From positions 1 through 23,944 of IMG/VR virus record IMGVR_UViG_3300033064_003625: 23,944 nucleotides of DNA; one strand, 5' to 3'. Of this stretch, positions 6,652 to 20,428 are shown piece after piece. How positions within the stretch are numbered: the first letter of the stretch is position 1; each line of letters starts with the position of its first letter. The DNA comes from a virus. Below the pieces are notes generated by a model. It ran no database searches. It saw nothing but the letters and a program-made list of their open reading frames with translations, and was not told the DNA's origin. The translations under genes and the position numbers were made by a program.

Positions 6652-9597
6652 TTACCACTCCCCGGTCTGAAAGCGTTCCATCTTCTGATCAAGGCGATGG
6701 GTGATTTCAACGATCGCTTCATCAGCGTCGGCGAAGCGGGCGTGGGTCCCGTGACCATTGATCACATCGCCGACACCGTCACGATTGACATTCAGATCGA
6801 AGCTCACATCGATGCCCTCACCAAGCAGCACCAAGCACTCGGTGTAATATGATAAGGTATCGATGCCGACCAGCTTTGTCTGGGCGAGGAAGTGCTCGCG
6901 ATACATCGCACACGCCTCTCTGGCGCGACCCGCCATGTCGGCCGTGACCTGCCCGCCATTACCTTGATAAAGGTAGCGGTTGAGCAGGCACATATCCCGG
7001 ATCACGAAATGCTTTTGCAGCAGGCGATCAGGGTAGGTCTCGATATCTTTTCTGACCAGCGGCGTATTGCGGCCAAACCGGTTGCGCCTGATATTCTCAG
7101 ACATGTATCCGGTATGGCCTATATTGACATCAGTGACGATCAGCACTGGCCCCGGCCCTTTATTCATGCCGGCTTCCGGGTGCTCGTGGATCATGCCGTA
7201 GAACCTGATCGGATTGCCGTCAGGCGTGGCAGTGCGATTAAAAAGCCTGACCGGCATATCGGGATCGAAGTGCCCATCGACGGTGAAGTGGTGTTGCTTG
7301 AGACCGAACCCGACCCAATGCGACTGGCGCATATACTTGGTGATGTTCTGGGCATCGACAATCCGCTCATCGGTATCGAACCAGAGGATCATGTCAGTCC
7401 AGCTAGCATCAAGCGCCTCATTGCGCGGCGTTTCAAAACCATGCTGGATTGGATCCGAGCCTTCGATGATGCGGACAGTCGGCACCGTTGCGAGCATGAT
7501 CTTGCTCAGATCAGAAAGGCCGGTATCGACCACCACGATCTCATCGACCAATTCCTTGACGGCATCGATGCCCCAAAGGATTGACTTCTCGGCACCCGGG
7601 CCGGCAATGATATTTGCCGACACGGTCAGGCGCGGTCGCTGAAGCCGCAGCTTGCGATCGAGGTCGATGGGTTTGATGGGCTCGTGATCTGCTTTGTACC
7701 AAGTCAAATGGTAGCCGACAGCGTCGCCGTTGACATCGCACTTGCGCTCGGGCGATCCATCGACCGCCAGATCAGGTTTGCCTTTGAACATCTCTGCCAG
7801 ATCAGCAAGCTCCAGTTCCCAGATATGATTCCGGAACTCGTACCAGTTGCGAGTGCCAATCTCACTGGGACCGAATGGCGTGGTGATCAAAACCAGACCG
7901 CCAGCCTTGATAAATTTTTCGAGCCGCTCGACAACCGTTGCCGGTTCAATCACATGCTCAAGCACTTCACTGATCAAGAGCACATCATACTCTTCAATCA
8001 GCTCGATCTCATCGTCGCCGACGAGAAATTCGAGGTTGGCAGGAGCATTGGCAAACTCTTGGGCATAGCGTTCACATGCCGCGATGGCACCGGGATCAAT
8101 ATCGACGCCGGTGATTTCACAGCCCAGTGTGTTGGCATAGAAGATCGACGACCAGCCATGCCCGCAGCCAAACTCGAGCATCTTGAAATCAGGGAGATCC
8201 CCGTCTTCGTTGGTTTGCATTTCAAACCGGATGCGATCAGCGATGTCCCTGAAGCGCCGCTCGTTGGATCCATCAAACATATCCGGCGTCGCCTCGAGCT
8301 TGTCAAGGTACGCTGAGGTATTTAAACCATTTGAAAGATAATGCTCGTTGAACGCTTCTTGGCTTACGATGAACGGGTAGTGCTGGTCAATCAGACCACT
8401 CAAGCGATCAGCGCCCTGCCCGGTCTGACCTTCCAGCGCCGCCTTGGCGGCAAAGATGTCTGACCGTTTGTAGAAATGATAGGCCAGCCGAACCGGATCA
8501 TCGTTGAGCTCATCGAACAACTTGTCGAAGCCCAACGTCCATTCTTCGGCGACTGAAGACCAGTCCATCGCCTTGGCAGCTTTGATACCGGCCTTCGATG
8601 CAGCCTCGAAGGCTTTATCGTCGGTCGCGAATTTGACCACGGCAGCGACGAACTTCTCGACGTAGGCGGTGCCATCATTGATCAGGGTGCCGGCACCTTT
8701 GGCGACGGTTTCAGGGAGCGCCCCGATGCGGCTTGTAACTATGGGAAGGCCGCAGGCTTGAACCTCCATGGCGGAGATGCATGAGATTTCCCGGAAGTCT
8801 GCACTGATCGGACTCGGTGTCGGATACACGTACACGCCCGCGGCCTTATGGACCGCATAAAGCTCGGCCTTTGTCAGGTGCCCTCCGTGCTTCACACGAT
8901 CCCCCATCTCATCCATCTGTTGGGCTAAGGCACCATAGAAGCCATCCAGATGAGACACAGGATTTTCATAACCGTACACCGTGAGGCGATACTCGGGATC
9001 GATCTCCCAGAGCGCCGGCATGATCTTGTCGAGCATGACATCAAGGCCACGCTCGGGTCGGGCGGCATATATAAGATGCTTGCGATCACGCCCGCCGCCG
9101 GGGGCATCATCAATCAACTTGAGGTCGATGCCGTTGCGCGTGCTCCACCAGATCGGATCGTCTTCGCCGAAGCCGTATACATCGGAATACTGCTTGCGCA
9201 TGAATTCAGAGAGCACCATGACGCGGTCGATGTTCCAGCTTGGCGCTTTGAAGTGATCGCTCATACGACCCGTCGCCATATCATGTTGCCAGAGGATATT
9301 GACTTTGGAGGCCAGACGGTTTTGGAAGGCGGTGGGCTGGCGCTGCACGATGTTGATATCATGAGGCGTCGACTTGGAATAAATCTCCCAGCGATCCTGC
9401 GGCATGTAGACCACATTATCGTGAGTGCTGATTTCGGGTGTGTTTGAAAAGACAATGACGCGATGACCCATCGCTGCCAGTTCACGAGCCATACATAGGC
9501 CCGCAGTTTCGGAGCCGCCCAAAGACTTGGTCTTTAAGGTGCTCCCGTCAAAGGCCATGCCGGGCACCAGCATGACGATATCATATGCATCTCGCAT
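6652..9597 (-). CDS. Three-domain GT4 glycosyltransferase - SAM methyltransferase - GT2 glycosyltransferase
   Basis: A 981-residue protein with three enzyme domains. Residues 1-365 are a GT-B glycosyltransferase (GT4-like): SLGGSETA at 25-32, AARPERGLD at 178-186, and SAMEVQACGLPIVTS at 275-289 for nucleotide-sugar binding. Residues about 470-640 are a class I SAM methyltransferase: LEFGCGHGW at 474-482, GVDIDPGAI at 497-505, and EVLEHVIEP at 544-552. Residues about 655-850 are a GT-A glycosyltransferase (GT2-like): VVVDTG at 688-693, RNEALD at 725-730 and the metal-binding FDTDE at 740-744. The rest is helical. An ATG 24 bases upstream (9621) overlaps the previous stop, but the one at 9597 has the AGAAAGGTAGAA leader two bases before it and starts right at the first beta strand, so it is preferred. 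The protein probably adds and methylates sugars on a virion or surface glycan; the substrate is unknown. Confidence 0.9.
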   Translation of the reverse strand: MRDAYDIVMLVPGMAFDGSTLKTKSLGGSETAGLCMARELAAMGHRVIVFSNTPEISTHDNVVYMPQDRWEIYSKSTPHDINIVQRQPTAFQNRLASKVNILWQHDMATGRMSDHFKAPSWNIDRVMVLSEFMRKQYSDVYGFGEDDPIWWSTRNGIDLKLIDDAPGGGRDRKHLIYAARPERGLDVMLDKIMPALWEIDPEYRLTVYGYENPVSHLDGFYGALAQQMDEMGDRVKHGGHLTKAELYAVHKAAGVYVYPTPSPISADFREISCISAMEVQACGLPIVTSRIGALPETVAKGAGTLINDGTAYVEKFVAAVVKFATDDKAFEAASKAGIKAAKAMDWSSVAEEWTLGFDKLFDELNDDPVRLAYHFYKRSDIFAAKAALEGQTGQGADRLSGLIDQHYPFIVSQEAFNEHYLSNGLNTSAYLDKLEATPDMFDGSNERRFRDIADRIRFEMQTNEDGDLPDFKMLEFGCGHGWSSIFYANTLGCEITGVDIDPGAIAACERYAQEFANAPANLEFLVGDDEIELIEEYDVLLISEVLEHVIEPATVVERLEKFIKAGGLVLITTPFGPSEIGTRNWYEFRNHIWELELADLAEMFKGKPDLAVDGSPERKCDVNGDAVGYHLTWYKADHEPIKPIDLDRKLRLQRPRLTVSANIIAGPGAEKSILWGIDAVKELVDEIVVVDTGLSDLSKIMLATVPTVRIIEGSDPIQHGFETPRNEALDASWTDMILWFDTDERIVDAQNITKYMRQSHWVGFGLKQHHFTVDGHFDPDMPVRLFNRTATPDGNPIRFYGMIHEHPEAGMNKGPGPVLIVTDVNIGHTGYMSENIRRNRFGRNTPLVRKDIETYPDRLLQKHFVIRDMCLLNRYLYQGNGGQVTADMAGRAREACAMYREHFLAQTKLVGIDTLSYYTECLVLLGEGIDVSFDLNVNRDGVGDVINGHGTHARFADADEAIVEITHRLDQKMERFQTGEW

Positions 9598-9599
9598 TT

Positions 9600-9611
9600 T
9601 TCTACCTTTCT
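9600..9611 (-). promoter_or_regulatory. AGAAAGKTAGAA leader, copy 2 (decides start of the glycosyltransferase fusion)
   Basis: Minus-strand AGAAAGGTAGAA ends two bases before the ATG at 9597, giving AAGG about 7 bases from the start. It is identical to the leader at 4071-4082, which favours 9597 over the upstream ATG at 9621. Confidence 0.6.
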
Positions 9612-9620
9612 CATGGTTCA

Positions 9621-9959
9621 TTAAAGCTTCCGCACCACTTTGAAATCGCGTGCGGCAGCTTGGTCAATATCAAGTTCGATCCGGCCATATTCAAAGGGCT
9701 TTAAAACTTCGGCCGAAAGAGCAACGCCACCGATGCCAACTGTCCAAGTGAAATCTCCCTGACCATCCATCTCAGCAATGCGGACAAAGCCAGCTGAGGT
9801 TGTGTCAAAATTCCCTTGCAGGAATGCCTGACAGGAAGTGAGTGCCGGGGCAACGATGGCAAGTTCCCTTGCCCCGGCAATCGAGAAGTTACCTGACACC
9901 AGACCGCTCCCGCTAATGGGGACTGTCGCTGTCTCTGTGTCAACGGTTTTCCGTGGCAT
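9621..9959 (-). CDS. Small beta-rich structural protein, head region
   Basis: A 112-residue protein with no catalytic motif. After a short polar start it alternates strands (GLVSGNFSIAGARELAIVAP, then FLQGNFDTTSAGFVRI, DFTWTVGIGG and FEYGRIELDIDQAAARDFKV), which looks like a beta sandwich. Proteins of this size and shape after the major capsid gene are often minor decoration or neck proteins. It follows its neighbour by four bases, with only a weak AGGG site upstream, so it probably relies on coupled translation. Not recognised to a named family. Confidence 0.7.
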   Translation of the reverse strand: MPRKTVDTETATVPISGSGLVSGNFSIAGARELAIVAPALTSCQAFLQGNFDTTSAGFVRIAEMDGQGDFTWTVGIGGVALSAEVLKPFEYGRIELDIDQAAARDFKVVRKL

Positions 9960-10544: not shown

Positions 10545-11531
10545 TTAACCGCGGGGGTCAACGATGAGGTAGCCGAGCTCGGGAGCAACGACTTTCTCAT
10601 CCTGGAAGTGGCCGGCCTCGATGACCTCGACCTTCTCGGTGCCAGCACCGGCGATGGTCATGCGCTCAACCTGGAAGTCAGCCGGGAAACCCGCCGGACG
10701 CCAATTGAACCGAAGACCGAGCGACTTCGTCTGCAGCCCGGTGGCCGGCCCGATGTGAGCCAGGAGCACGTTGTTGCCCCAGATGTTCGTGATCGAGGAG
10801 GCGCCGCCTTCGAGTTCGTTTGCCTTGACCGCCATGCCGATGTGAATTTCCTTGACGCCGAAAACGTCGCGGAGGTTTTCCATCGTCACCATGCCGGACT
10901 GGGTATGCTTGTACATATCCAAGAGCATGGGATGACGGCGCACGATCTGAGCCGTGTCGTAATCCATCATCATGGTATTGGCGACCAGACCAGTCTGCGC
11001 CCGGATATAGGCGTGGCCGGTGGTGACGTCGGCGATCGGATCGGAGGCAGTGAAGTCGGTCCACTGATTCCCACCGGTCAAGGTCGTACCCGACCCGAGG
11101 TTGCCGGCGGTCGTCAGCAAGGTCGCGATGCGATCTTCCTGCGAGCGGAGCAAGTCGGTGGTGATCAGGCTGACGCTGTTCTCGCGCAGCTGGATCGCCA
11201 TATCGGCATTGGCGAGGTCTTCCAAAGCGTTCTCATTGGCCAACGCGTAGTTGTCGGCGAAGAAGGCATCGGAGCTGACATCGAACTCGACCCGGCGGGC
11301 TTTGGTCTTGGGTGCCCGGAGTGCCGTCTGGGTACGGAGGAAGGCGCCTTTGCTGATCGTGTAGTACTTATCGGATTGCTTGCCGACCGGAACGGCCGGG
11401 AGCAACTTTGCCCCGATGAAGTCATCCACGTTATCGTTGAAGGCGCGCACCGCCATGTTCGAGAGCGGCACATCCATGTGAGCGTCGCCGCCGGAAGGGG
11501 TACCGTACTTTTTCAGAGTTGACTTTAACAT
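10545..11531 (-). CDS. Major capsid protein (HK97-fold type)
   Basis: A 328-residue protein with the opening typical of a widespread phage major capsid family: DVPLSNMAVRAFNDNVDDF, IGAKLLPAVPVGKQSDKYYT and ISKGAFLR, then a run of arginine-rich sequence. Later segments (TAQIVRRHPMLLDMYKHT, LRDVFGVKEIHIG, NNVLLAHIGP, and a C-terminal EAGHFQDEKVVAPELGYL) match capsid A- and P-domain patterns. Two ATGs sit in tandem at 11534 and 11531. The AGGAGG site ends 2 bases before the first but 5 before the second, so the second is preferred. The same AGGAGG contains the end of the cement gene's stop, and a strong site fits the most abundant virion protein. Confidence 0.9.
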   Translation of the reverse strand: MLKSTLKKYGTPSGGDAHMDVPLSNMAVRAFNDNVDDFIGAKLLPAVPVGKQSDKYYTISKGAFLRTQTALRAPKTKARRVEFDVSSDAFFADNYALANENALEDLANADMAIQLRENSVSLITTDLLRSQEDRIATLLTTAGNLGSGTTLTGGNQWTDFTASDPIADVTTGHAYIRAQTGLVANTMMMDYDTAQIVRRHPMLLDMYKHTQSGMVTMENLRDVFGVKEIHIGMAVKANELEGGASSITNIWGNNVLLAHIGPATGLQTKSLGLRFNWRPAGFPADFQVERMTIAGAGTEKVEVIEAGHFQDEKVVAPELGYLIVDPRG

Positions 11532-11540
11532 CATCCCCTC

Positions 11541-11930
11541 CTATGTCCGGACCAGAGGCGTGGGACGCTCAAGCAGCACCCGGACAACTTCGCCGTCGGT
11601 GGCCGCAGTCTCGAGAGCGGTACCGATGACAATATTGCCGGAGGCTGCATCAGCGGCGCGCCCTGACCCATTGGTGGTGATTTTGGAATTGGCGGTGACG
11701 GCGCCACCGGCAACGACCTTGACTTCGCCGGCGTAGGCGATGGTCGCGGCCTGACCAGAATCGGGTTTGTTGATCAGCACGCCCATCGGCCCGAGCACGT
11801 GTGTGGCGGCAGCGTGCGACGCGATGTCGCAAGTGCCGGCCGCAACCGCTCGCTGAATGGTGTACTGCATCGTCCGCATGTCCCGGGCCGCTTGCGCGGT
11901 GCGGGATACGACATTGACCATATCAGACAT
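11541..11930 (-). CDS. Capsid cement / head decoration protein (DUF2190-like)
   Basis: A 129-residue beta-rich protein with repeated small-residue turns: MGVLINKPDSGQAATIAYAG, EVKVVAGGAVTANSKITTNG, then SGRAADAASGNIVIGTALET and DGEVVRVLLERPTPL. This pattern is characteristic of DUF2190-type proteins that stabilise capsids and are encoded beside the major capsid gene. It follows the protease-scaffold gene with a one-base overlap (TGATG), the normal gene order for this module. Confidence 0.85.
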   Translation of the reverse strand: MSDMVNVVSRTAQAARDMRTMQYTIQRAVAAGTCDIASHAAATHVLGPMGVLINKPDSGQAATIAYAGEVKVVAGGAVTANSKITTNGSGRAADAASGNIVIGTALETAATDGEVVRVLLERPTPLVRT

Positions 11931-12643
11931 CAGCTGGCCTCCGCGTACTGGCGTTTCAGCTCGGCATTGTCAGGGTCATCACAGACCAGCTTGAAGGCTG
12001 CGCTGTAATCCTTGATGTCATGCTTGGCCATGTAAACGCTGGTGAGCCGACTCAACTCGGCACCGGCATCTTCGGTCGTCTCGGCGGCGGGCTCGTCATC
12101 CCGTTTGAAGTCACCGGTGTGACCCAGAGTGGTGAAAAGTCTTTCGGTGGATTTGTTGATGCGGGCGACCAGATCGTCGATGACCTTGATCGCAGCAACA
12201 TCGCCGTACTTCTTTTCACCCTTGTCATCTTCGCTGATGAAGAAGCGAACCTGAGTGTCCGACCGGGAGGCCAGATCATAAAGGGCCGCGACATGATCAC
12301 GAAGAGAGGGAACGCGCAGGTCTTTGACTTTGGCCTCAACCCGAGCGGCGCGCTCGCGTTCGCCGGAAGCAGCGAGCTCGGTGCGCATCGCTTCCATATC
12401 ATCCTGCATCTTTTTGAAGTCGACGGCGTCGACACTGGCCGATCCGCCATCGCCTTCATCATCGCCTTCACCGGCCTTGTCTTTCGACTTGGGCGGCTTG
12501 GCTGACAGTTCCACGATCTTGCCGGACACTTCGGACTGCTCTGCATAAAGGGCAGCGAGCTTTTCAGCGTCCTGCTCTTCTGCAATCTCAGCCGTCAATG
12601 CGGTCAAGCGCGCGGTGCAATCAGCAAGGGTTTTGAGCGTCAT
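11930..12643 (-). CDS. Scaffold protein from an internal in-frame start
   Basis: Met297 of the protease-scaffold gene (ATG at 12643) is preceded by AGAGGAGAG with an AGGAG core 7 bases from the ATG, a much better ribosome site than that of the full-length gene. Starting there gives a 237-residue, mostly helical and acidic protein with the features of a free scaffold and no protease domain. The same nested arrangement is known for Mu I/Z and lambda C/Nu3, where the short form is made in excess as the true scaffold. The reading frame is the same as that of the parent gene. Confidence 0.75.
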   Translation of the reverse strand: MTLKTLADCTARLTALTAEIAEEQDAEKLAALYAEQSEVSGKIVELSAKPPKSKDKAGEGDDEGDGGSASVDAVDFKKMQDDMEAMRTELAASGERERAARVEAKVKDLRVPSLRDHVAALYDLASRSDTQVRFFISEDDKGEKKYGDVAAIKVIDDLVARINKSTERLFTTLGHTGDFKRDDEPAAETTEDAGAELSRLTSVYMAKHDIKDYSAAFKLVCDDPDNAELKRQYAEAS

Positions 12644-13531
12644 CTTTGCTCTCCTCTTTGGTTGAACCGTATAGGCGTGTATTCCATCCCATGAGCTTTC
12701 GCCAAATTCGACGACGCCATGGAGCGGCTTCAAGTCGCCCACACCGGGGGTTTCGGCCCCGAGCAGGGCCACTGCTTTCAAGACACGCCGGAACAGTTTC
12801 CCGTTGCGCTTGAAATTCCAAAATATCTCTGAGCTCACCGCATCGAAGCGGCGCTCTTTAATCAGAGACACGATTTCTTTGGGGACATCGACAAAGTCAG
12901 CGACCAGTCTGGCGGCGCTCTTCTTTGCGTTGTCAAATTCGATGCGGATATTCTCGACCCAGCCATAAGCCATGCCGCCGCTCTTCTCTTGATGGCCCAG
13001 CTTGACTGGCGGGTTGAAGCCGACGCCTTCGGCGGCGGCGACGATATCTTGAAGGTCCTTGGTGGTGTAGTTCTCGCCATTCCATTTGCCGGTGCGAAAG
13101 ATTTCAACGCCATCGATGCGCCCGCTGTTGGGAGCAGGGTCCTTGAAATCTTTCAGCTCAGCGAATGACTTGGGCCGTTCAATCCGCTTGATTGTCGAGG
13201 GATCAAAGTTGTCTTTGGCTCGAATTTCGTATGTGAATTCATTCCGCGTGTCTTTGAATTCATCGCCGCCCCAGAAGCTCATCTGATCAAGCCACTTGCG
13301 GGCGGATACAAGATCGTAGGCTTCTTTGTCAAATGATACGGAATGGATGGCCCAGTTGTCTGAGCCCTTAACTTTGCCGATGGAGATTGTGATGCCAACC
13401 GGCTGGAAAAAACCAAAGGCGCTAAATGCGGCCTTTTCAGCATCGCCTTTGACGGCGACTGTAGAACGATCCTTGAGCTCTGTCGCAGCAATGCGATCCA
13501 AGCCGGGAATATTCAATAGCTGAAGCTTCAT
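11930..13531 (-). CDS. Head maturation protease fused to scaffold (Mu gpI-like)
   Basis: A 533-residue protein. Residues about 60-130 hold an extension with SFDKEAYDLVSARKWLDQ, seen in some phage protease genes. Residues about 140-275 are the Mu I-like head protease domain: VEIFRTGKWNGENYTTKDL, VKLGHQ (His180), GWVENIRIEF, then RRFDAVSSEIFWNFK (Ser233/Ser234) and LKAVALLGAETPGV; His180 and one of the serines are candidate catalytic residues. Residues 297-533 are a charged, coiled-coil-rich scaffold (ARLTALTAEIAEEQDAEKL, a disordered acidic stretch, and MQDDMEAMRTELAASGERER). It would clear the scaffold after capsid assembly. A weak GAGGG site lies upstream of the ATG, directly after a terminator-like hairpin. 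Confidence 0.85.
   Translation of the reverse strand: MKLQLLNIPGLDRIAATELKDRSTVAVKGDAEKAAFSAFGFFQPVGITISIGKVKGSDNWAIHSVSFDKEAYDLVSARKWLDQMSFWGGDEFKDTRNEFTYEIRAKDNFDPSTIKRIERPKSFAELKDFKDPAPNSGRIDGVEIFRTGKWNGENYTTKDLQDIVAAAEGVGFNPPVKLGHQEKSGGMAYGWVENIRIEFDNAKKSAARLVADFVDVPKEIVSLIKERRFDAVSSEIFWNFKRNGKLFRRVLKAVALLGAETPGVGDLKPLHGVVEFGESSWDGIHAYTVQPKRRAKMTLKTLADCTARLTALTAEIAEEQDAEKLAALYAEQSEVSGKIVELSAKPPKSKDKAGEGDDEGDGGSASVDAVDFKKMQDDMEAMRTELAASGERERAARVEAKVKDLRVPSLRDHVAALYDLASRSDTQVRFFISEDDKGEKKYGDVAAIKVIDDLVARINKSTERLFTTLGHTGDFKRDDEPAAETTEDAGAELSRLTSVYMAKHDIKDYSAAFKLVCDDPDNAELKRQYAEAS
12651..12655 (-). promoter_or_regulatory. Internal ribosome-binding site for the scaffold
   Basis: Minus-strand AGGAG lies 7 bases before the in-frame ATG at 12643, inside the protease-scaffold coding sequence. 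Confidence 0.75.
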
Positions 13532-13541
13532 ATTGGTCCCT

Positions 13542-13588
13542 CAAAACAAAAACGCCACGCGCCGGGCTTTGACCCGAGGCGTGGCGTT
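13542..13588 (-). terminator. Intrinsic terminator in the leader of the protease gene
   Basis: Arms 13551-13560 (AACGCCACGC) and 13579-13588 (GCGTGGCGTT) pair perfectly over 10 bp, with an inner 4 bp CGGG/CCCG stem. On the minus strand the hairpin is followed at once by TTTTTGTTTT. It ends about 10 bases before the start codon at 13531, so it would stop minus-strand transcripts crossing the inverted island unless relieved. Confidence 0.75.
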
Positions 13589-15455: not shown

Positions 15456-15649
15456 AAATACTATCGAAAGAAGAATACACCCGCAGTGAGGGAAAGGTTT
15501 GCCCTCACTGCAAAGAGAAAGAAGTGACCTCGGTCACATCCATTGAGCGGGATGCTTTTGGCGCTTGGCGCGAAATGGCCTGCAAATCTTGCGGGGCAAA
15601 GTTCATCGAGCAGTTCAGACTTGACGGGTATTCTCAGCTTTCAGTTTAA
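15452..15649 (+). CDS. Small zinc-ribbon protein
   Basis: A 65-residue protein with two CxxC pairs, C17/C20 (CPHC) and C44/C47 (CKSC), separated by 23 residues: a four-cysteine zinc-ribbon arrangement. Zinc ribbons of this size usually bind nucleic acid or protein; the partner is unknown. It starts with a four-base overlap with the previous gene. Its TAA overlaps the stop of the convergent glycosyltransferase gene, with no terminator between the two. Confidence 0.75.
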   Translation: MKILSKEEYTRSEGKVCPHCKEKEVTSVTSIERDAFGAWREMACKSCGAKFIEQFRLDGYSQLSV

Positions 15650-16431
15650 ACCACATGCCCATCGATCAGGTGGTGGAACATGCGTAGGTGGCCGCAGGTT
15701 TTGAAATGCTTGTCGGCCATCTGTTGCCTGTACTTGTGGAAGCGTTCGACCTGCGCCTCTTCTGAATGGAGGTCGTTGTAGGTCGCCCGATTGAGATGCT
15801 CGATGCGCACCCGATGATTGCGATACGATCGTAGGCCGGCAGCGTAGTGGGCCAAGACCAAATCGGTGTCGCTGAAGATGTCAGGGAAGTCTTCATCAAA
15901 TGTCTTTGGGAATGGATCAGTGTTAGTTGATCCATGTGCCGCGTTGCCATCCATCAGAGCCCAGTGCTCGGGCAACCATTGTCGACGGAACATCATGAAG
16001 GGACCATAGACACCTTCAATGATGTGATCGCCGACATCGCTTATTGGCTTTGGCAGATCCCCAGACGCCAAGCATGATACGCCGCAGTCAGCATAATCTT
16101 CGAAGGGCCGCAGCAGCTCACGCGCCCAGCCCGGGCGGACAAAGACATCATTGCCGGTGTGCACCACGAACTCACCATCGCACCACTTGAGGCCGGCATT
16201 GGCATCGGCGGTCCATTGGGATTTTTCTTCGATGTTGACATACTTGGTCTGCACGGGCAATCCATTGCCTTGATAAACCTTGTGGTCCTGGAGATGGCTG
16301 CTGCCAGTCTCGACAATCACTAGGTTGAAACCAGCGCCGGGATAGATGGCAAGGCAATCCAGAGCGTACTTGGTCATGGGCACCTGCCAACTGGGCTCGG
16401 TGAATAGAATGGGCATCAGCACTGTGATCAT
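15646..16431 (-). CDS. GT2-like glycosyltransferase, copy B
   Basis: A 261-residue GT-A fold enzyme. It has LVIVETGSS at 37-45 (nucleotide binding), DANAGLKWCDGEFVVHTGND (76-95) with a D-x-x-x metal site variant (NDVF), then YGPFMMFRRQW and SDTDLVLAHYAAGLRSYRNHRV near the C-terminus, as in the GT2 acceptor region. It is a clear relative of the gene directly upstream (same segments in the same order), so the pair is a tandem duplication. The ATG overlaps that gene's stop by one base. A conventional D-x-D is replaced by N-D, which may change metal use. Substrate unknown. Confidence 0.85.
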   Translation of the reverse strand: MITVLMPILFTEPSWQVPMTKYALDCLAIYPGAGFNLVIVETGSSHLQDHKVYQGNGLPVQTKYVNIEEKSQWTADANAGLKWCDGEFVVHTGNDVFVRPGWARELLRPFEDYADCGVSCLASGDLPKPISDVGDHIIEGVYGPFMMFRRQWLPEHWALMDGNAAHGSTNTDPFPKTFDEDFPDIFSDTDLVLAHYAAGLRSYRNHRVRIEHLNRATYNDLHSEEAQVERFHKYRQQMADKHFKTCGHLRMFHHLIDGHVV

Positions 16432-17156
16432 CAGAAGTACTCCCGGCCGTATTGGTTGCTGCCGCGCATCATCATTCGGTAGATTGCCAGCGGGCTGTCG
16501 CCATGGCGCTTCTCGAACTTTGCCTTGGCGATCATCACTTTCTCATTCCGCTCTTCGGCGCTGAATGCTTTTTCCCAAGTGATGCCATTCATGTGAAAGC
16601 CCTTGGCCTTATTGTTTCGGTACGCCCGCATGCCATCGTTATAAATGCGCATGACCAGATCGTTGTCGGAGGCTTGGTCGGGGAACATTGGATCCAAGAA
16701 CCAGCCATCGCGAAACATCATCAGCGGCCCGTACATCGCCTCATCGATTGTATCTTGCGGCACGAAGGGACCAATGCTAGCGCCGGGCTCGCCCATTGAG
16801 ATTGTCGCCACGCCGCAATCTTTGAACTTGGTGAAGCATTCCAGCATTGCTTCGAGCCAGCCCTCGCCGACAAAGACATCGATGCCGATATGGACTTTGA
16901 AGTCGCCGCTTGATGTCCGCAGGCCGGCGTTGAAGTCGCTGGTGTAATTGGATCGCTTTTCCATGTAGAGATGCCTGTCGGCCAAATCAACTAGATCACC
17001 TAGATCACCTGATCCGGTCTCGACGATCACCAGCTCGAAAGGGATCTTGGTCTTTGCCCGCATCGTCAGAATTTGGAATCGAGCGAGATCCTCCTGCCAT
17101 GGATCAGCGAGCATCACCGGCAATATCACCGAGACGCGCGTTTTCGAATTGCTCAT
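16431..17156 (-). CDS. GT2-like glycosyltransferase, copy A
   Basis: A 241-residue GT-A fold enzyme. RVSVILPV forms the first strand (7-14), followed by LVIVETGSG at 42-50, DFNAGLRTSSGDFKVHIGID at 74-93, and the metal-site variant IDVF. The C-terminal part carries YGPLMMFRDGW and SDNDLVMRIYNDGMRAYRNN. These match copy B. The first strand is needed for the fold, so the start at 17156 is retained even though it overlaps the radical SAM gene by 53 bases in another frame. The two enzymes could add two sugars in a chain or form one complex; this is inference. Confidence 0.85.
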   Translation of the reverse strand: MSNSKTRVSVILPVMLADPWQEDLARFQILTMRAKTKIPFELVIVETGSGDLGDLVDLADRHLYMEKRSNYTSDFNAGLRTSSGDFKVHIGIDVFVGEGWLEAMLECFTKFKDCGVATISMGEPGASIGPFVPQDTIDEAMYGPLMMFRDGWFLDPMFPDQASDNDLVMRIYNDGMRAYRNNKAKGFHMNGITWEKAFSAEERNEKVMIAKAKFEKRHGDSPLAIYRMMMRGSNQYGREYF

Positions 17157-18810
17157 AACTAGCCTTCCTGCCGTACCAGACGGCTTCCCTCGCCCATGCT
17201 TCTTTGTCTGGCCATATTGGCTTGATCGATTTCAACTGGTGGCCAATGACGGAGCTGGGCAATTCCACCATGTGGCACACTTCAGCCACGAACAGGTCGG
17301 GGTTTTCCATAGCCCGGATATAGGATGCTTCTTCTGCTGGCCATGAGATGTCACCATAACCCGGCATCACCTGATCCCACGATCCGCCGGCGAGAGCCTC
17401 GGCGAACACTTTGCCATACTTATAGAAGATCATGCCGACTAACGTGCTTAGGTCTGGGTGCGAGGCCATCGCCCAATAGAATCTGGTATAGGGAATGCCA
17501 AAAGTTAACTTGGCAAAGATCGCTAGGCCGCGGGTCAGGCCAGTGCAATGGAAGGCTTGGATCGCATGCGACAGAATCATGGCTGATCGCCATTCGTCAA
17601 GGCTCATGGTCGAAGTGCTAGTCACCACCTCATAGGTCTCTTTAGCCCATTCATCAGGAGTAGCGTGGAGCAGCATCTGTTGCATGGTCAGGGTTTCAAT
17701 TTGATGCTTTTCGCGATAGGCTGGGTCATTGAGTTCACTGTTGGGCAAAACGATGCAAGGGTATATTGCCAAGTTGGCATTCGGGTCGGCATCAAGGATA
17801 CGATCGATGCCGCCAATGAAAGATTCCCAAGTCTCGCCCGGCAGGCCGATGATCAGCTCAGTATAAGTGGGAACGCCGCGTTCAGCGTAGCGCCGGGACA
17901 AGGCGGCATAATCATTGATAGCGATATTCTTGCGCTTGATAGCGGTGAGGGTATTGTCATCGAGGGACTGCAACGATAACGTGACGCCCTTGCCCAATCC
18001 AGAATCGTTTAATCGGCATGCCTGCTCGAAGATCCGATCGGTATGGATCTTGGGATAAGCGGCGCGCAACTTTTGCGGCCAGCCTGTGTTCTCTTTGGTG
18101 GTGATCAACCATTCAATCAGTTCACCATCACGCGGCAGCATGCCGAAGTTGGCATCGCAATTGTAGATGAGTTCAATCTGGTTGTCGCTGAACCAAATCA
18201 TCTCAGCCTTGAGGCGCTCCATATCGAACTGTGTCACCTTGGCTTGGACGGCGGAACCCCAATCACAAAAAGTGCAGCTGTACGGGCAACCACGGTGCGT
18301 TTCCCAAAGGGCATGGAAATCGACCTCCGGGTTGGCCTCAATGAGATCATCGAACAGGCCAGTGAGATATGGTGATGGGAGCTGGGAGATGTCTTTGGAG
18401 CGACCATTGCAAAACGTCACCGGCCTAGTAGGAATATCAACCAGTGCTGAATGGAATATCTTTTCACCTTCACCCATGATGGCAATGTCGATGAAATCTG
18501 GCGGCTCTGACGTCACCTGTGGCCCGCCAAGAATGACAACACACTTTGGGTTATCTCGTTTGACCGCAGCAGCCAGAGCCAGATTGTATTCCCAATTCCA
18601 GATGTAACAACTCAGGGCCAGGATGTCGGGCTTGGCCTTTATGATATTCTCGAAAGGCTCGCGGTCGAACTGCATTGGCCGGGCCAGCTCGAAGTTATCG
18701 CGGACCATCTCGTCCTGTATGGCATAGGCCCACAGGCTGGCGACCGAATATGGCAAGAAGGCGTTATTGCCGAAGCGATGGTTGGGCTGGGCGAGGTGAA
18801 TTGTTTTCAT
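17104..18810 (-). CDS. Radical SAM enzyme with B12-binding-type N-terminal domain
   Basis: A 568-residue protein. Residues 1-125 form a cobalamin-binding-like domain with ALSCYIWNWEYNLALA, VVILGGPQVT (91-100) and IMGEGEKIF (111-119). The DxHxxG cobalt ligand motif is not visible, so cobalamin may bind in a base-off mode or not at all. The radical SAM core follows with C175-x3-C179-x2-C182 (GCPYSCTFC) for the [4Fe-4S] cluster, then NCDANFGM, SLQSLDD and ELIIGLPGET. Residues from about 400 on are helical and unassigned. Such enzymes make methylations or rearrangements at unactivated carbons, and here the context suggests sugar or peptide modification. The ATG overlaps the 70-residue gene by four bases. 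Confidence 0.85.
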   Translation of the reverse strand: MKTIHLAQPNHRFGNNAFLPYSVASLWAYAIQDEMVRDNFELARPMQFDREPFENIIKAKPDILALSCYIWNWEYNLALAAAVKRDNPKCVVILGGPQVTSEPPDFIDIAIMGEGEKIFHSALVDIPTRPVTFCNGRSKDISQLPSPYLTGLFDDLIEANPEVDFHALWETHRGCPYSCTFCDWGSAVQAKVTQFDMERLKAEMIWFSDNQIELIYNCDANFGMLPRDGELIEWLITTKENTGWPQKLRAAYPKIHTDRIFEQACRLNDSGLGKGVTLSLQSLDDNTLTAIKRKNIAINDYAALSRRYAERGVPTYTELIIGLPGETWESFIGGIDRILDADPNANLAIYPCIVLPNSELNDPAYREKHQIETLTMQQMLLHATPDEWAKETYEVVTSTSTMSLDEWRSAMILSHAIQAFHCTGLTRGLAIFAKLTFGIPYTRFYWAMASHPDLSTLVGMIFYKYGKVFAEALAGGSWDQVMPGYGDISWPAEEASYIRAMENPDLFVAEVCHMVELPSSVIGHQLKSIKPIWPDKEAWAREAVWYGRKASYEQFENARLGDIAGDAR

Positions 18811-19019
18811 CCGCAGAGCATCCAGCTGAATAGATATGACATTCCGGCACTACCAAGAAAGGCACCGACACCAGCAGCAAGCCAAAGGGGAGGGGGCTTG
18901 ATGATGCGTTCTTTGATCTCATCCTTGGTCTCAACTTCTTTTGGATCACCACGCCGGTCAATGGACTTTGCTCTATCAGTTGGCCTATCAGTTGTAGGCT
19001 TCTTACCTTGCTCAGCCAT
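18807..19019 (-). CDS. Small one-TM protein
   Basis: A 70-residue protein with a charged, lysine/arginine-rich N-terminal 42 residues and a single hydrophobic segment at about 44-67 (LWLAAGVGAFLGSAGMSYLF). It overlaps both neighbours (one base with the dehydrogenase, four with the radical SAM gene), so it is built into this operon. It could anchor the enzymes at the membrane. A holin-like role is possible for any small TM protein in a phage, but there is no lysis gene beside it. Function unknown. Confidence 0.65.
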   Translation of the reverse strand: MAEQGKKPTTDRPTDRAKSIDRRGDPKEVETKDEIKERIIKPPPLWLAAGVGAFLGSAGMSYLFSWMLCG

Positions 19020-20428
19020 CAGCCTTCTCCCACTCGGATCACCGTGATGCCATCTTGGTCAGCGATGTAGCGGTGAGGGTCGATGACGATTGAGCCTTCG
19101 ATCCATGCCCAGCGCTCCCAAAGCTCATGCTTGCAACTAATAACAGCGATGCAAGGCTTGCCTTCGCCACTAAATACATCTGGTGCGCCTTCGCCAGAAT
19201 CAATGCGTGGATCCCACTCTGTGCAAATTGGATCGAACATCTCAAATGGCACCTGGCCAGTCATCAAGTCAGCCAGCAACAATGCCGGGCTTCCAGTTGT
19301 GATGTTGGTGCCGGGCTTGAAGGCTGTGCCCATGAGCACCACGGGCAGGCTGGTCGCCTTGTATTGTTCAATGATCAGGCGCATCAGGTAGTCGGTCTGG
19401 TACTCGCGCCAGTGCATGATGTCCTCGAAAGGATTGCAGCTCAGCTTGAGCTCTTGGGCCAGATACGACATGGCAATGTTATCACGAGGATGACAACCAC
19501 CACCATCGCCCATACCGCCACGAAGATAAGTTGGGCTAATGATGCGACGATGAGCAAGGGAAAGCCCATCAATAACTTCATCGCAATCAGCATTTGGTAT
19601 TTCATGGCATATCTCCATGATGGTATTTGCGAAGCCAATCTTCAGGCCGATGAAGGTATTGTAAGCGACCTTGGTCAGCTCGGCACTTTCGATTGACACC
19701 TCAGCGAACGGGGCGTGGCGCTTGTGCGTTCGCTCGGAATATTCATGTGGCGCATCTTCATCAACCATTGTGGCCGCAAGGCAATCGATGTGCGCTTGGC
19801 GAACTTTGTCAAGTGCACCGTCATCATCCCCACCCAGCAGCACGAACTCCGGGTCGATGAAGTCGCGCCACGTTGTGCCCATGGCGATGAAGGCAGGGTT
19901 ATAAACGACCGGCGCGATGTCTTTGAAGATGGGCATGATCTCGCGGCGCATCGTGCCGGGGAGCATGGTGCTGATGATGGCGATTGTTGGTGGTGTATTG
20001 CCATCATCATGGTTGAATCTTTGAATGTTCAGAATGCAGTTGGCCAAGTCCTGACTGGCATCGGTGATGTAGTGATAGTCGAAGTCCTTGCGATCCAGCG
20101 GAATGGGCGTGATGCCTTCATATTCTGGATCGTGCGGCGTCTGCACTGCGACGAAGATCACTTCGGCATGCGCTGCGACCTCGCCCATTGAGCCGAAGTG
20201 GAGGCGACCACTTTCTTTGCTGACGAAAGTTTTACCATCATTATCCGCCATGTGCCTGACGGTGATGTTGAAATCACTGCCACCCGGATCCAGTTCCTGA
20301 TACTGGCGCTGGTTATAGGTCATGTTGACTGGGTCAAGATCGTAACCCATAACGTCATGCCCGGCATAAACCATTGCAGTGGCGACGGGATAGCCCAGCT
20401 TGCCTAGGCCGATGAATCCGATTTTCAT
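19019..20428 (-). CDS. UDP-glucose / GDP-mannose dehydrogenase-like protein
   Basis: A 469-residue protein with the three-part fold of nucleotide-sugar dehydrogenases: NAD-binding GFIGLGKLG (4-12), the middle segment ESAELTKVAYNTFIGLKIGF (247-266), the catalytic GDGGGCHPRDN with Cys312, and the UDP-binding GTAFKPGT at 367-374. The family makes UDP-glucuronic or GDP-mannuronic acid by a two-step oxidation through this Cys. In most members the motif is GGxCFPKD; here it is GGGCHPRD, with His and Arg in place of Phe and Lys. It starts at 20428 with the AGAAAGTTAGAA leader 4 bases before the ATG. It begins the sugar cassette, probably supplying an acidic sugar donor for the glycosyltransferases. 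Confidence 0.9.
   Translation of the reverse strand: MKIGFIGLGKLGYPVATAMVYAGHDVMGYDLDPVNMTYNQRQYQELDPGGSDFNITVRHMADNDGKTFVSKESGRLHFGSMGEVAAHAEVIFVAVQTPHDPEYEGITPIPLDRKDFDYHYITDASQDLANCILNIQRFNHDDGNTPPTIAIISTMLPGTMRREIMPIFKDIAPVVYNPAFIAMGTTWRDFIDPEFVLLGGDDDGALDKVRQAHIDCLAATMVDEDAPHEYSERTHKRHAPFAEVSIESAELTKVAYNTFIGLKIGFANTIMEICHEIPNADCDEVIDGLSLAHRRIISPTYLRGGMGDGGGCHPRDNIAMSYLAQELKLSCNPFEDIMHWREYQTDYLMRLIIEQYKATSLPVVLMGTAFKPGTNITTGSPALLLADLMTGQVPFEMFDPICTEWDPRIDSGEGAPDVFSGEGKPCIAVISCKHELWERWAWIEGSIVIDPHRYIADQDGITVIRVGEG

What the first reader, a model, noticed from the sequence alone, without database searches (positions are those of the whole stretch)
11930..12643. Scaffold start inside the protease gene with a near-perfect ribosome site
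Seen: AGGAG 7 bases before an in-frame ATG at codon 297, just after the protease domain ends and where the helical scaffold begins; the parent gene's own site is weak. Known: nested scaffolds occur in Mu (I/Z) and lambda (C/Nu3). Inferred: a separate 237-residue scaffold is made in excess.
Basis: partly seen in the sequence, partly recalled or inferred. Interest (0 to 1): 0.55.

Follow-up and report, generated by a model that had tools for sequence, protein, structure and literature searches.

The report
Nested scaffold start in phage protease
A phage gene that encodes a capsid-cutting protease fused to a scaffold carries a second, strong start signal where the scaffold begins, so the scaffold can probably also be made alone; relatives share this and the trick is already known from phage Mu.

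Summary
In the 533-codon minus-strand gene at 11930-13531, ATG codon 297 (12643) is preceded by AGGAG with a 7-base spacer. It is the only one of 195 internal in-frame ATGs in 22 window genes with AGGAG 5-9 bases upstream. The gene matches head-maturation-protease families over about residues 132-278. A predicted disordered linker (260-297) ends at Met297 and helices start at 302. The site is conserved: a 68%-identical relative keeps AGGAG-ATG, and 18 of 23 tested non-redundant genes (window included) have an ATG with strong Shine-Dalgarno pairing 23-45 codons after the protease domain, against 1-6 of 21-23 (any start codon) in displaced intervals. Phage Mu I/Z, scored the same way, gives the same picture. 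So this is most likely a functional internal start making a 237-residue scaffold: a new member of the Mu I/Z kind. Two qualifications: the parent site is average, not weak, for this window, and "in excess" is inferred. A side observation is a strong terminator-like hairpin just upstream of the parent gene in the window and several relatives.

The parts
11930..13531 (-). Parent gene, 533 aa: N-terminal extension (1-131), head maturation protease domain (about 132-278), disordered linker (260-297), helical scaffold (302-532)
   Evidence: phrog_3894 E 5e-24, phrog_976 E 1e-21; AlphaFold model, mean pLDDT 62.6
12698..13138 (-). Head maturation protease domain, about residues 132-278; His180 and Ser233 nearly invariant among relatives (candidate catalytic pair, inferred)
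12641..12754 (-). Linker, residues 260-297, predicted disordered (pLDDT below 50), ending at Met297
12651..12655 (-). Internal Shine-Dalgarno AGGAG, 7 bases before ATG codon 297
   Evidence: conserved in L002
11930..12643 (-). Nested scaffold reading frame, 237 aa, calculated 25.9 kDa
   Evidence: conservation of the start
13539..13542 (-). Parent gene Shine-Dalgarno GAGG, 7 bases before the ATG at 13531
13543..13588 (-). Terminator-like hairpin (38 nt, -28.2 kcal/mol) followed by TTTGTTTT, ending 11 bases before the parent ATG
11541..11930 (-). Capsid decoration (cement) gene; its ATG overlaps the scaffold stop codon (TGATG)
   Evidence: PF09956 E 9e-7; junction sequence
10545..11534 (-). Major capsid gene
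   Evidence: phrog_1005 E 7e-67

Best explanation
The gene encodes a capsid maturation protease fused through a flexible linker to a helical scaffold. Ribosomes start at two places on the same message: at codon 1, giving the 59 kDa protease-scaffold, and at codon 297, giving a free 26 kDa scaffold. The free scaffold co-assembles with the fusion inside the procapsid, so that only some scaffold subunits carry a protease, which later destroys the scaffold. Shown here: the site, its unusual strength, its place at the domain junction, and its conservation in position across diverse relatives. Inferred: actual initiation, the dosage ratio, and the roles in assembly.
For: Site present and unique among 195 internal ATGs. 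Junction placement: protease profile ends near 278, linker 260-297 disordered, first scaffold helix 302. L002 (68% identity, best segment) keeps AGGAG-ATG although residues 292 and 296 beside the site differ; 15 of 16 degenerate identical-residue positions in -8..+10 use the same codon against 107 of 181 elsewhere, Fisher P 0.004 (permutation P 0.03-0.04 for the 15- and 20-codon windows, 0.44 for the 10-codon window). Family: 34 IMG/VR, MAG and window genes, 10 dropped as 90% redundant, 1 of the 24 left (L042) too short for the test; of 23 tested, 19 have a site at or below -6.5 kcal/mol 10-60 codons after the protease domain (18 if L051's doubtful +16 site is left out), against 3/21, 2/23, 1/23, 6/23 and 3/23 at five displaced intervals; combined synonymous-shuffle P 3e-4 against 0.89 or more for the displaced ones. 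In 14 of 24 the strongest internal site of the scanned stretch lies in that interval, 3.9 expected, none of 200,000 simulations reached it. Different residues build the site in different phages. Positive controls: the Mu Z start is the best of 16 internal sites, RcapMu40 the best of 9. Capsid-protein relative CRP-6 carries a protease and the following gene as separate ORFs.
Against: No expression data. Only 4 of 23 family members are individually below 0.05 in the synonymous shuffle, partly because acidic/lysine linkers give SD-like codons anyway. In L025, L027, L031 and L038 a downstream site inside a conserved KDGKM/KDGRM motif scores better, and in L036 one in the protease domain ties. L048 lacks a convincing site; L038 and L046 are weak (-5.6). 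Synonymous conservation at the start is below P 0.05 in 2 of 9 pairs and absent in others such as L032/L034. The SD model did not pick the annotated lambda Nu3 or KS10 gp29 starts, preferring other internal sites in both. Arthrobacter phages EastWest, Vibaki and Shade have only a weak GTG site (-5.3).
Confidence: 0.87

Rival explanations
1. Free scaffold comes from self-cleavage of the fusion in the 260-297 linker, not from internal initiation; the AGGAG is incidental.
For: The linker is predicted disordered, and herpesvirus UL26 cleaves itself at such a site, R, to free protease from scaffold (PMC12474303, passages read).
Against: An ATG with SD recurs at the junction while linker residues vary; incidental SDs should not cluster there. 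Cleavage may occur as well.
Confidence: 0.06
2. The internal site mainly raises ribosome traffic into the coupled decoration gene (TGATG overlap) rather than making scaffold as such.
For: Scaffold stop and decoration start overlap in the window.
Against: In L002 the stop and next ATG do not overlap (TAAATG), and the decoration gene has its own strong site (-9.5). Sites sit at the domain junction rather than near the downstream gene.
Confidence: 0.04
3. Chance match with no function.
For: AGGAG can arise from AGG-AGA arginine codons; the single-gene shuffle p is only 0.0105.
Against: Conservation and clustering across relatives.
Confidence: 0.03

Closest known systems
Phage Mu genes I and Z (and RcapMu39/40, KS10 gp28/29)
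   Same: Protease gene with in-frame nested scaffold start, upstream of the capsid gene; the Mu Z start, codon 179, has AGGAG and is the best internal site, RcapMu40 likewise. [quoted passage not shown] PaMx73 has a putative Val177 start with SD (PMC4378225, passages read).
   Different: The window protein has a 131-residue N-terminal extension and only weak sequence similarity to Mu-like proteases; no Pfam match.
Phage lambda C/Nu3
   Same: Nested scaffold in a protease gene followed by the decoration gene (roles partly recalled, see also PMC3224144, passages read).
   Different: No profile link of P0001 to lambda C was found. Lambda's annotated Nu3 start is poorly supported by SD pairing.
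Herpesvirus UL26/UL26.5
   Same: Protease-scaffold gene with a co-terminal shorter scaffold gene; the fusion-derived scaffold is about 10% of the total (PMC12474303, passages read).
   Different: That the short form there has its own transcript is recalled, not from a call; here the signal is an internal ribosome site.

Membership tests
Mu I/Z-type nested protease-scaffold | Head maturation protease fused to a C-terminal helical part, upstream of decoration/capsid genes | tested here: met
Mu I/Z-type nested protease-scaffold | In-frame internal start with SD at the protease/scaffold junction | tested here: met
   Mu control
Mu I/Z-type nested protease-scaffold | Short form actually made and acts as scaffold | not testable with these tools
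   needs expression or proteomics
Mu I/Z-type nested protease-scaffold | Sequence homology to Mu-like proteases | tested here: inconclusive
   Local alignment of the P0001 protease domain to RcapMu39 gives score 111 without a significance estimate; Pasteurella phage peptidase tblastn E 8e-6; not compared directly with Mu I
Lambda C/Nu3 | Protease of the lambda C family | tested here: not met
   No Pfam (E 0.01) or NCBIfam (E 0.1) match for P0001, and its PHROGs matches are phrog_3894 and phrog_976; lambda C itself was not run
Herpesvirus UL26/UL26.5 | Assemblin protease fold | tested here: inconclusive
   No PDB match at E 0.001 with a model of moderate confidence; BFVD matches include prohead proteases

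The most novel reading that the evidence does not exclude
In this phage group the capsid operon has two-tier dosage: a strong intrinsic terminator about 11-25 bases before the protease start codon lets only read-through or antiterminated transcripts make protease, while the internal start (and perhaps an undiscovered promoter inside the protease gene) supplies scaffold and capsid in bulk, somewhat as UL26/UL26.5 does in herpesviruses.
Probability: 0.1. Interest if true: 0.55.

Novelty: new member of a known kind. Interest (0 to 1): 0.32.

Why it matters
It shows, with controls, that the nested scaffold start is a conserved feature of a diverse group of uncultivated phages in which a plain ORF call lists only the long frame. 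It suggests a simple annotation rule: look for an SD-ATG about 20-45 codons after the protease domain.

Tried and rejected
Single-protein scans and the two-sequence scan A2 gave only L001/L004 (identical over the shared stretch) and L002; the portal scan gave L020. The first genome-contig scan confirmed none, the second gave L024. One search used a wrong interval for the locus-derived genes (130 codons too far downstream, my error) and its family figures are not used; one search is the corrected run, serves only for the redundancy list. Searches were scripts that failed (missing file; gapped sequence read in). The PDB fold search gave nothing significant. Rfam gave no match in 9 sources. Internal promoter: one sigma-70-like site on the minus strand inside the gene (13362-13333), 1.1 expected by chance; not pursued. 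Paper searches with narrow phrases found nothing. A review on phage assembly (PMC3185693) and one on herpes capsids (PMC4379554) were searched for passages and did not bear on nested starts.

Full report
Observation. On the minus strand the ORF at 13531-11930 runs 533 codons. Codon 297 is an ATG at 12643 with AGGAG and a 7-base spacer; 237 codons remain. Pairing with the 16S tail is -9.1 kcal/mol, the strongest of 409 internal in-frame start codons in 22 window genes, and it is the only internal ATG of 195 with AGGAG at 5-9 bases. The parent start (GAGG, -6.1) is average for this window, so 'weak' is only relatively right.

What the gene is. Residues 132-278 match head maturation protease families; Pfam and NCBIfam give nothing for it. 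His180 and Ser233 are nearly invariant among relatives. An AlphaFold model on a 20-sequence alignment (mean pLDDT 62.6, pTM 0.31) shows a beta-rich domain to about 257, a linker below pLDDT 50 from 260 to 297, then helices from 302. Viral-model matches include scaffolding proteins and prohead proteases; the PDB gives none at E 0.001. The next genes are a cement protein and the major capsid protein. The window is a linear IMG/VR record; no host is assigned.

Conservation. L002 keeps AGGAG and ATG in the same place, with near-identical codons around it. Alignment-based scans brought L022-L024 and L025-L055, the portal scan L020. Of 34 genes collected, 10 were dropped as redundant at 90%; duplicates L001, L004, L021-L023 and L026 were left out before. 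L042 is cut off too soon for the test, though it has a -13.1 ATG at +39. In the 23 tested, 19 have a site at or below -6.5 within 10-60 codons of the protease domain, 18 of them ATGs at +23 to +45; displaced intervals in the same genes give 1-6 of 21-23. Combined synonymous-shuffle P is 3e-4 at the junction and 0.89 or more elsewhere, though only 4 of 23 are individually below 0.05. In 14 of 24 the strongest site in the scanned part of the gene is in the interval, 3.9 expected. L049 and L051 have inserted stretches after the protease domain and strong sites near the later scaffold part (ATG354, GTG608); L048 has an insert and no convincing site. Named phages with related fusions show strong sites further along a longer linker: Colucci ATG295, ZiggyZoo GTG300, Pasteurella phage ATG210, RcapMu GTG220, the last annotated as a nested scaffold. 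EastWest, Vibaki and Shade have only a weak GTG site (-5.3); phiT1 and ACL01 have sites of -6.9.

Controls with known nested genes. Mu Z: best of 16 internal sites, parent -2.0 against -7.4. RcapMu40: best of 9. Lambda and KS10: annotated starts are weak and other internal sites score better, so SD scoring alone is imperfect, or those annotations deserve a second look.

Mechanism. The best account is dual initiation on one message giving a protease-scaffold fusion and free scaffold, as in Mu. The dosage ratio and assembly roles are inferred from the family. CRP-6, KPP23, Vibrio 1.103 and a Rhizobium phage with related capsid proteins have a protease-like gene followed by a separate gene instead; of these only CRP-6's first gene matched profiles named head maturation protease, the others matched phrog_1530, whose label is DNA methyltransferase, and the Rhizobium gene is annotated methyltransferase/prohead protease.

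Known or new. Nested scaffolds in protease genes are in print for Mu-like phages (PMC2628397 and PMC4378225, passages read). This is a new member of that kind. What may be less known is the terminator-like hairpin directly upstream of the parent gene: in the window and in L025, L027, L031, L032, L033, L034, L037, L039 and L044, none of 40 shuffles was as good; L053 has a weaker one (1 of 40), L020 and L052 chance-level ones (7 of 40 each), and L036, L040, L041, L043, L046, L049, L051 and L054 none by the same test (21 sources). L032, L033 and L034 are close relatives, so these are not ten independent cases. Its role is open; no paper search was made on it beyond the Mu late-promoter search (listing only).

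Noticed in passing
window 13543-13588 (-); L025, L027, L031, L032, L033, L034, L037, L039, L044 upstream of the protease gene: Strong hairpin plus U-run about 11-25 bases before the protease start codon, different in sequence but alike in place; in the relatives the loop repeats the complement of the 5' arm (three-part pattern, seen by eye). It leaves little room for a promoter between it and the gene.
   Followed up: partly
window 15646-20428; L025, L032, L036, L039, L040, L041, L043, L044 upstream of the protease gene: Cargo genes upstream of the protease: one or two ORFs sampled in each of 9 loci gave radical SAM in 7, FkbM methyltransferase in L025 and L036, nothing in L053; the window has radical SAM and UDP-glucose dehydrogenase-like genes between portal and protease.
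   Followed up: partly
L025, L027, L037, L038, L044, N-terminal part of the protease gene: In-frame YGGRGI-type insert resembling homing-endonuclease-associated domains (resemblance recalled; no Pfam hit to it in L027, L037, L044), absent in sister genes L032, L034, L036.
   Followed up: partly
L027 and L034, N-terminus of the protease gene: ChaB domain (PF06150, E 2e-9 and 9e-10) fused in front of the protease.
   Followed up: no
L056 (lambda C/Nu3), L058 (KS10): Annotated nested starts have weak SD pairing, while lambda codon 309 ATG and KS10 codon 238 GTG each score -10.8.
   Followed up: no
window 6652-9621 (-): 989-aa glycosyltransferase-methyltransferase protein lying among head and tail genes.
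   Followed up: no
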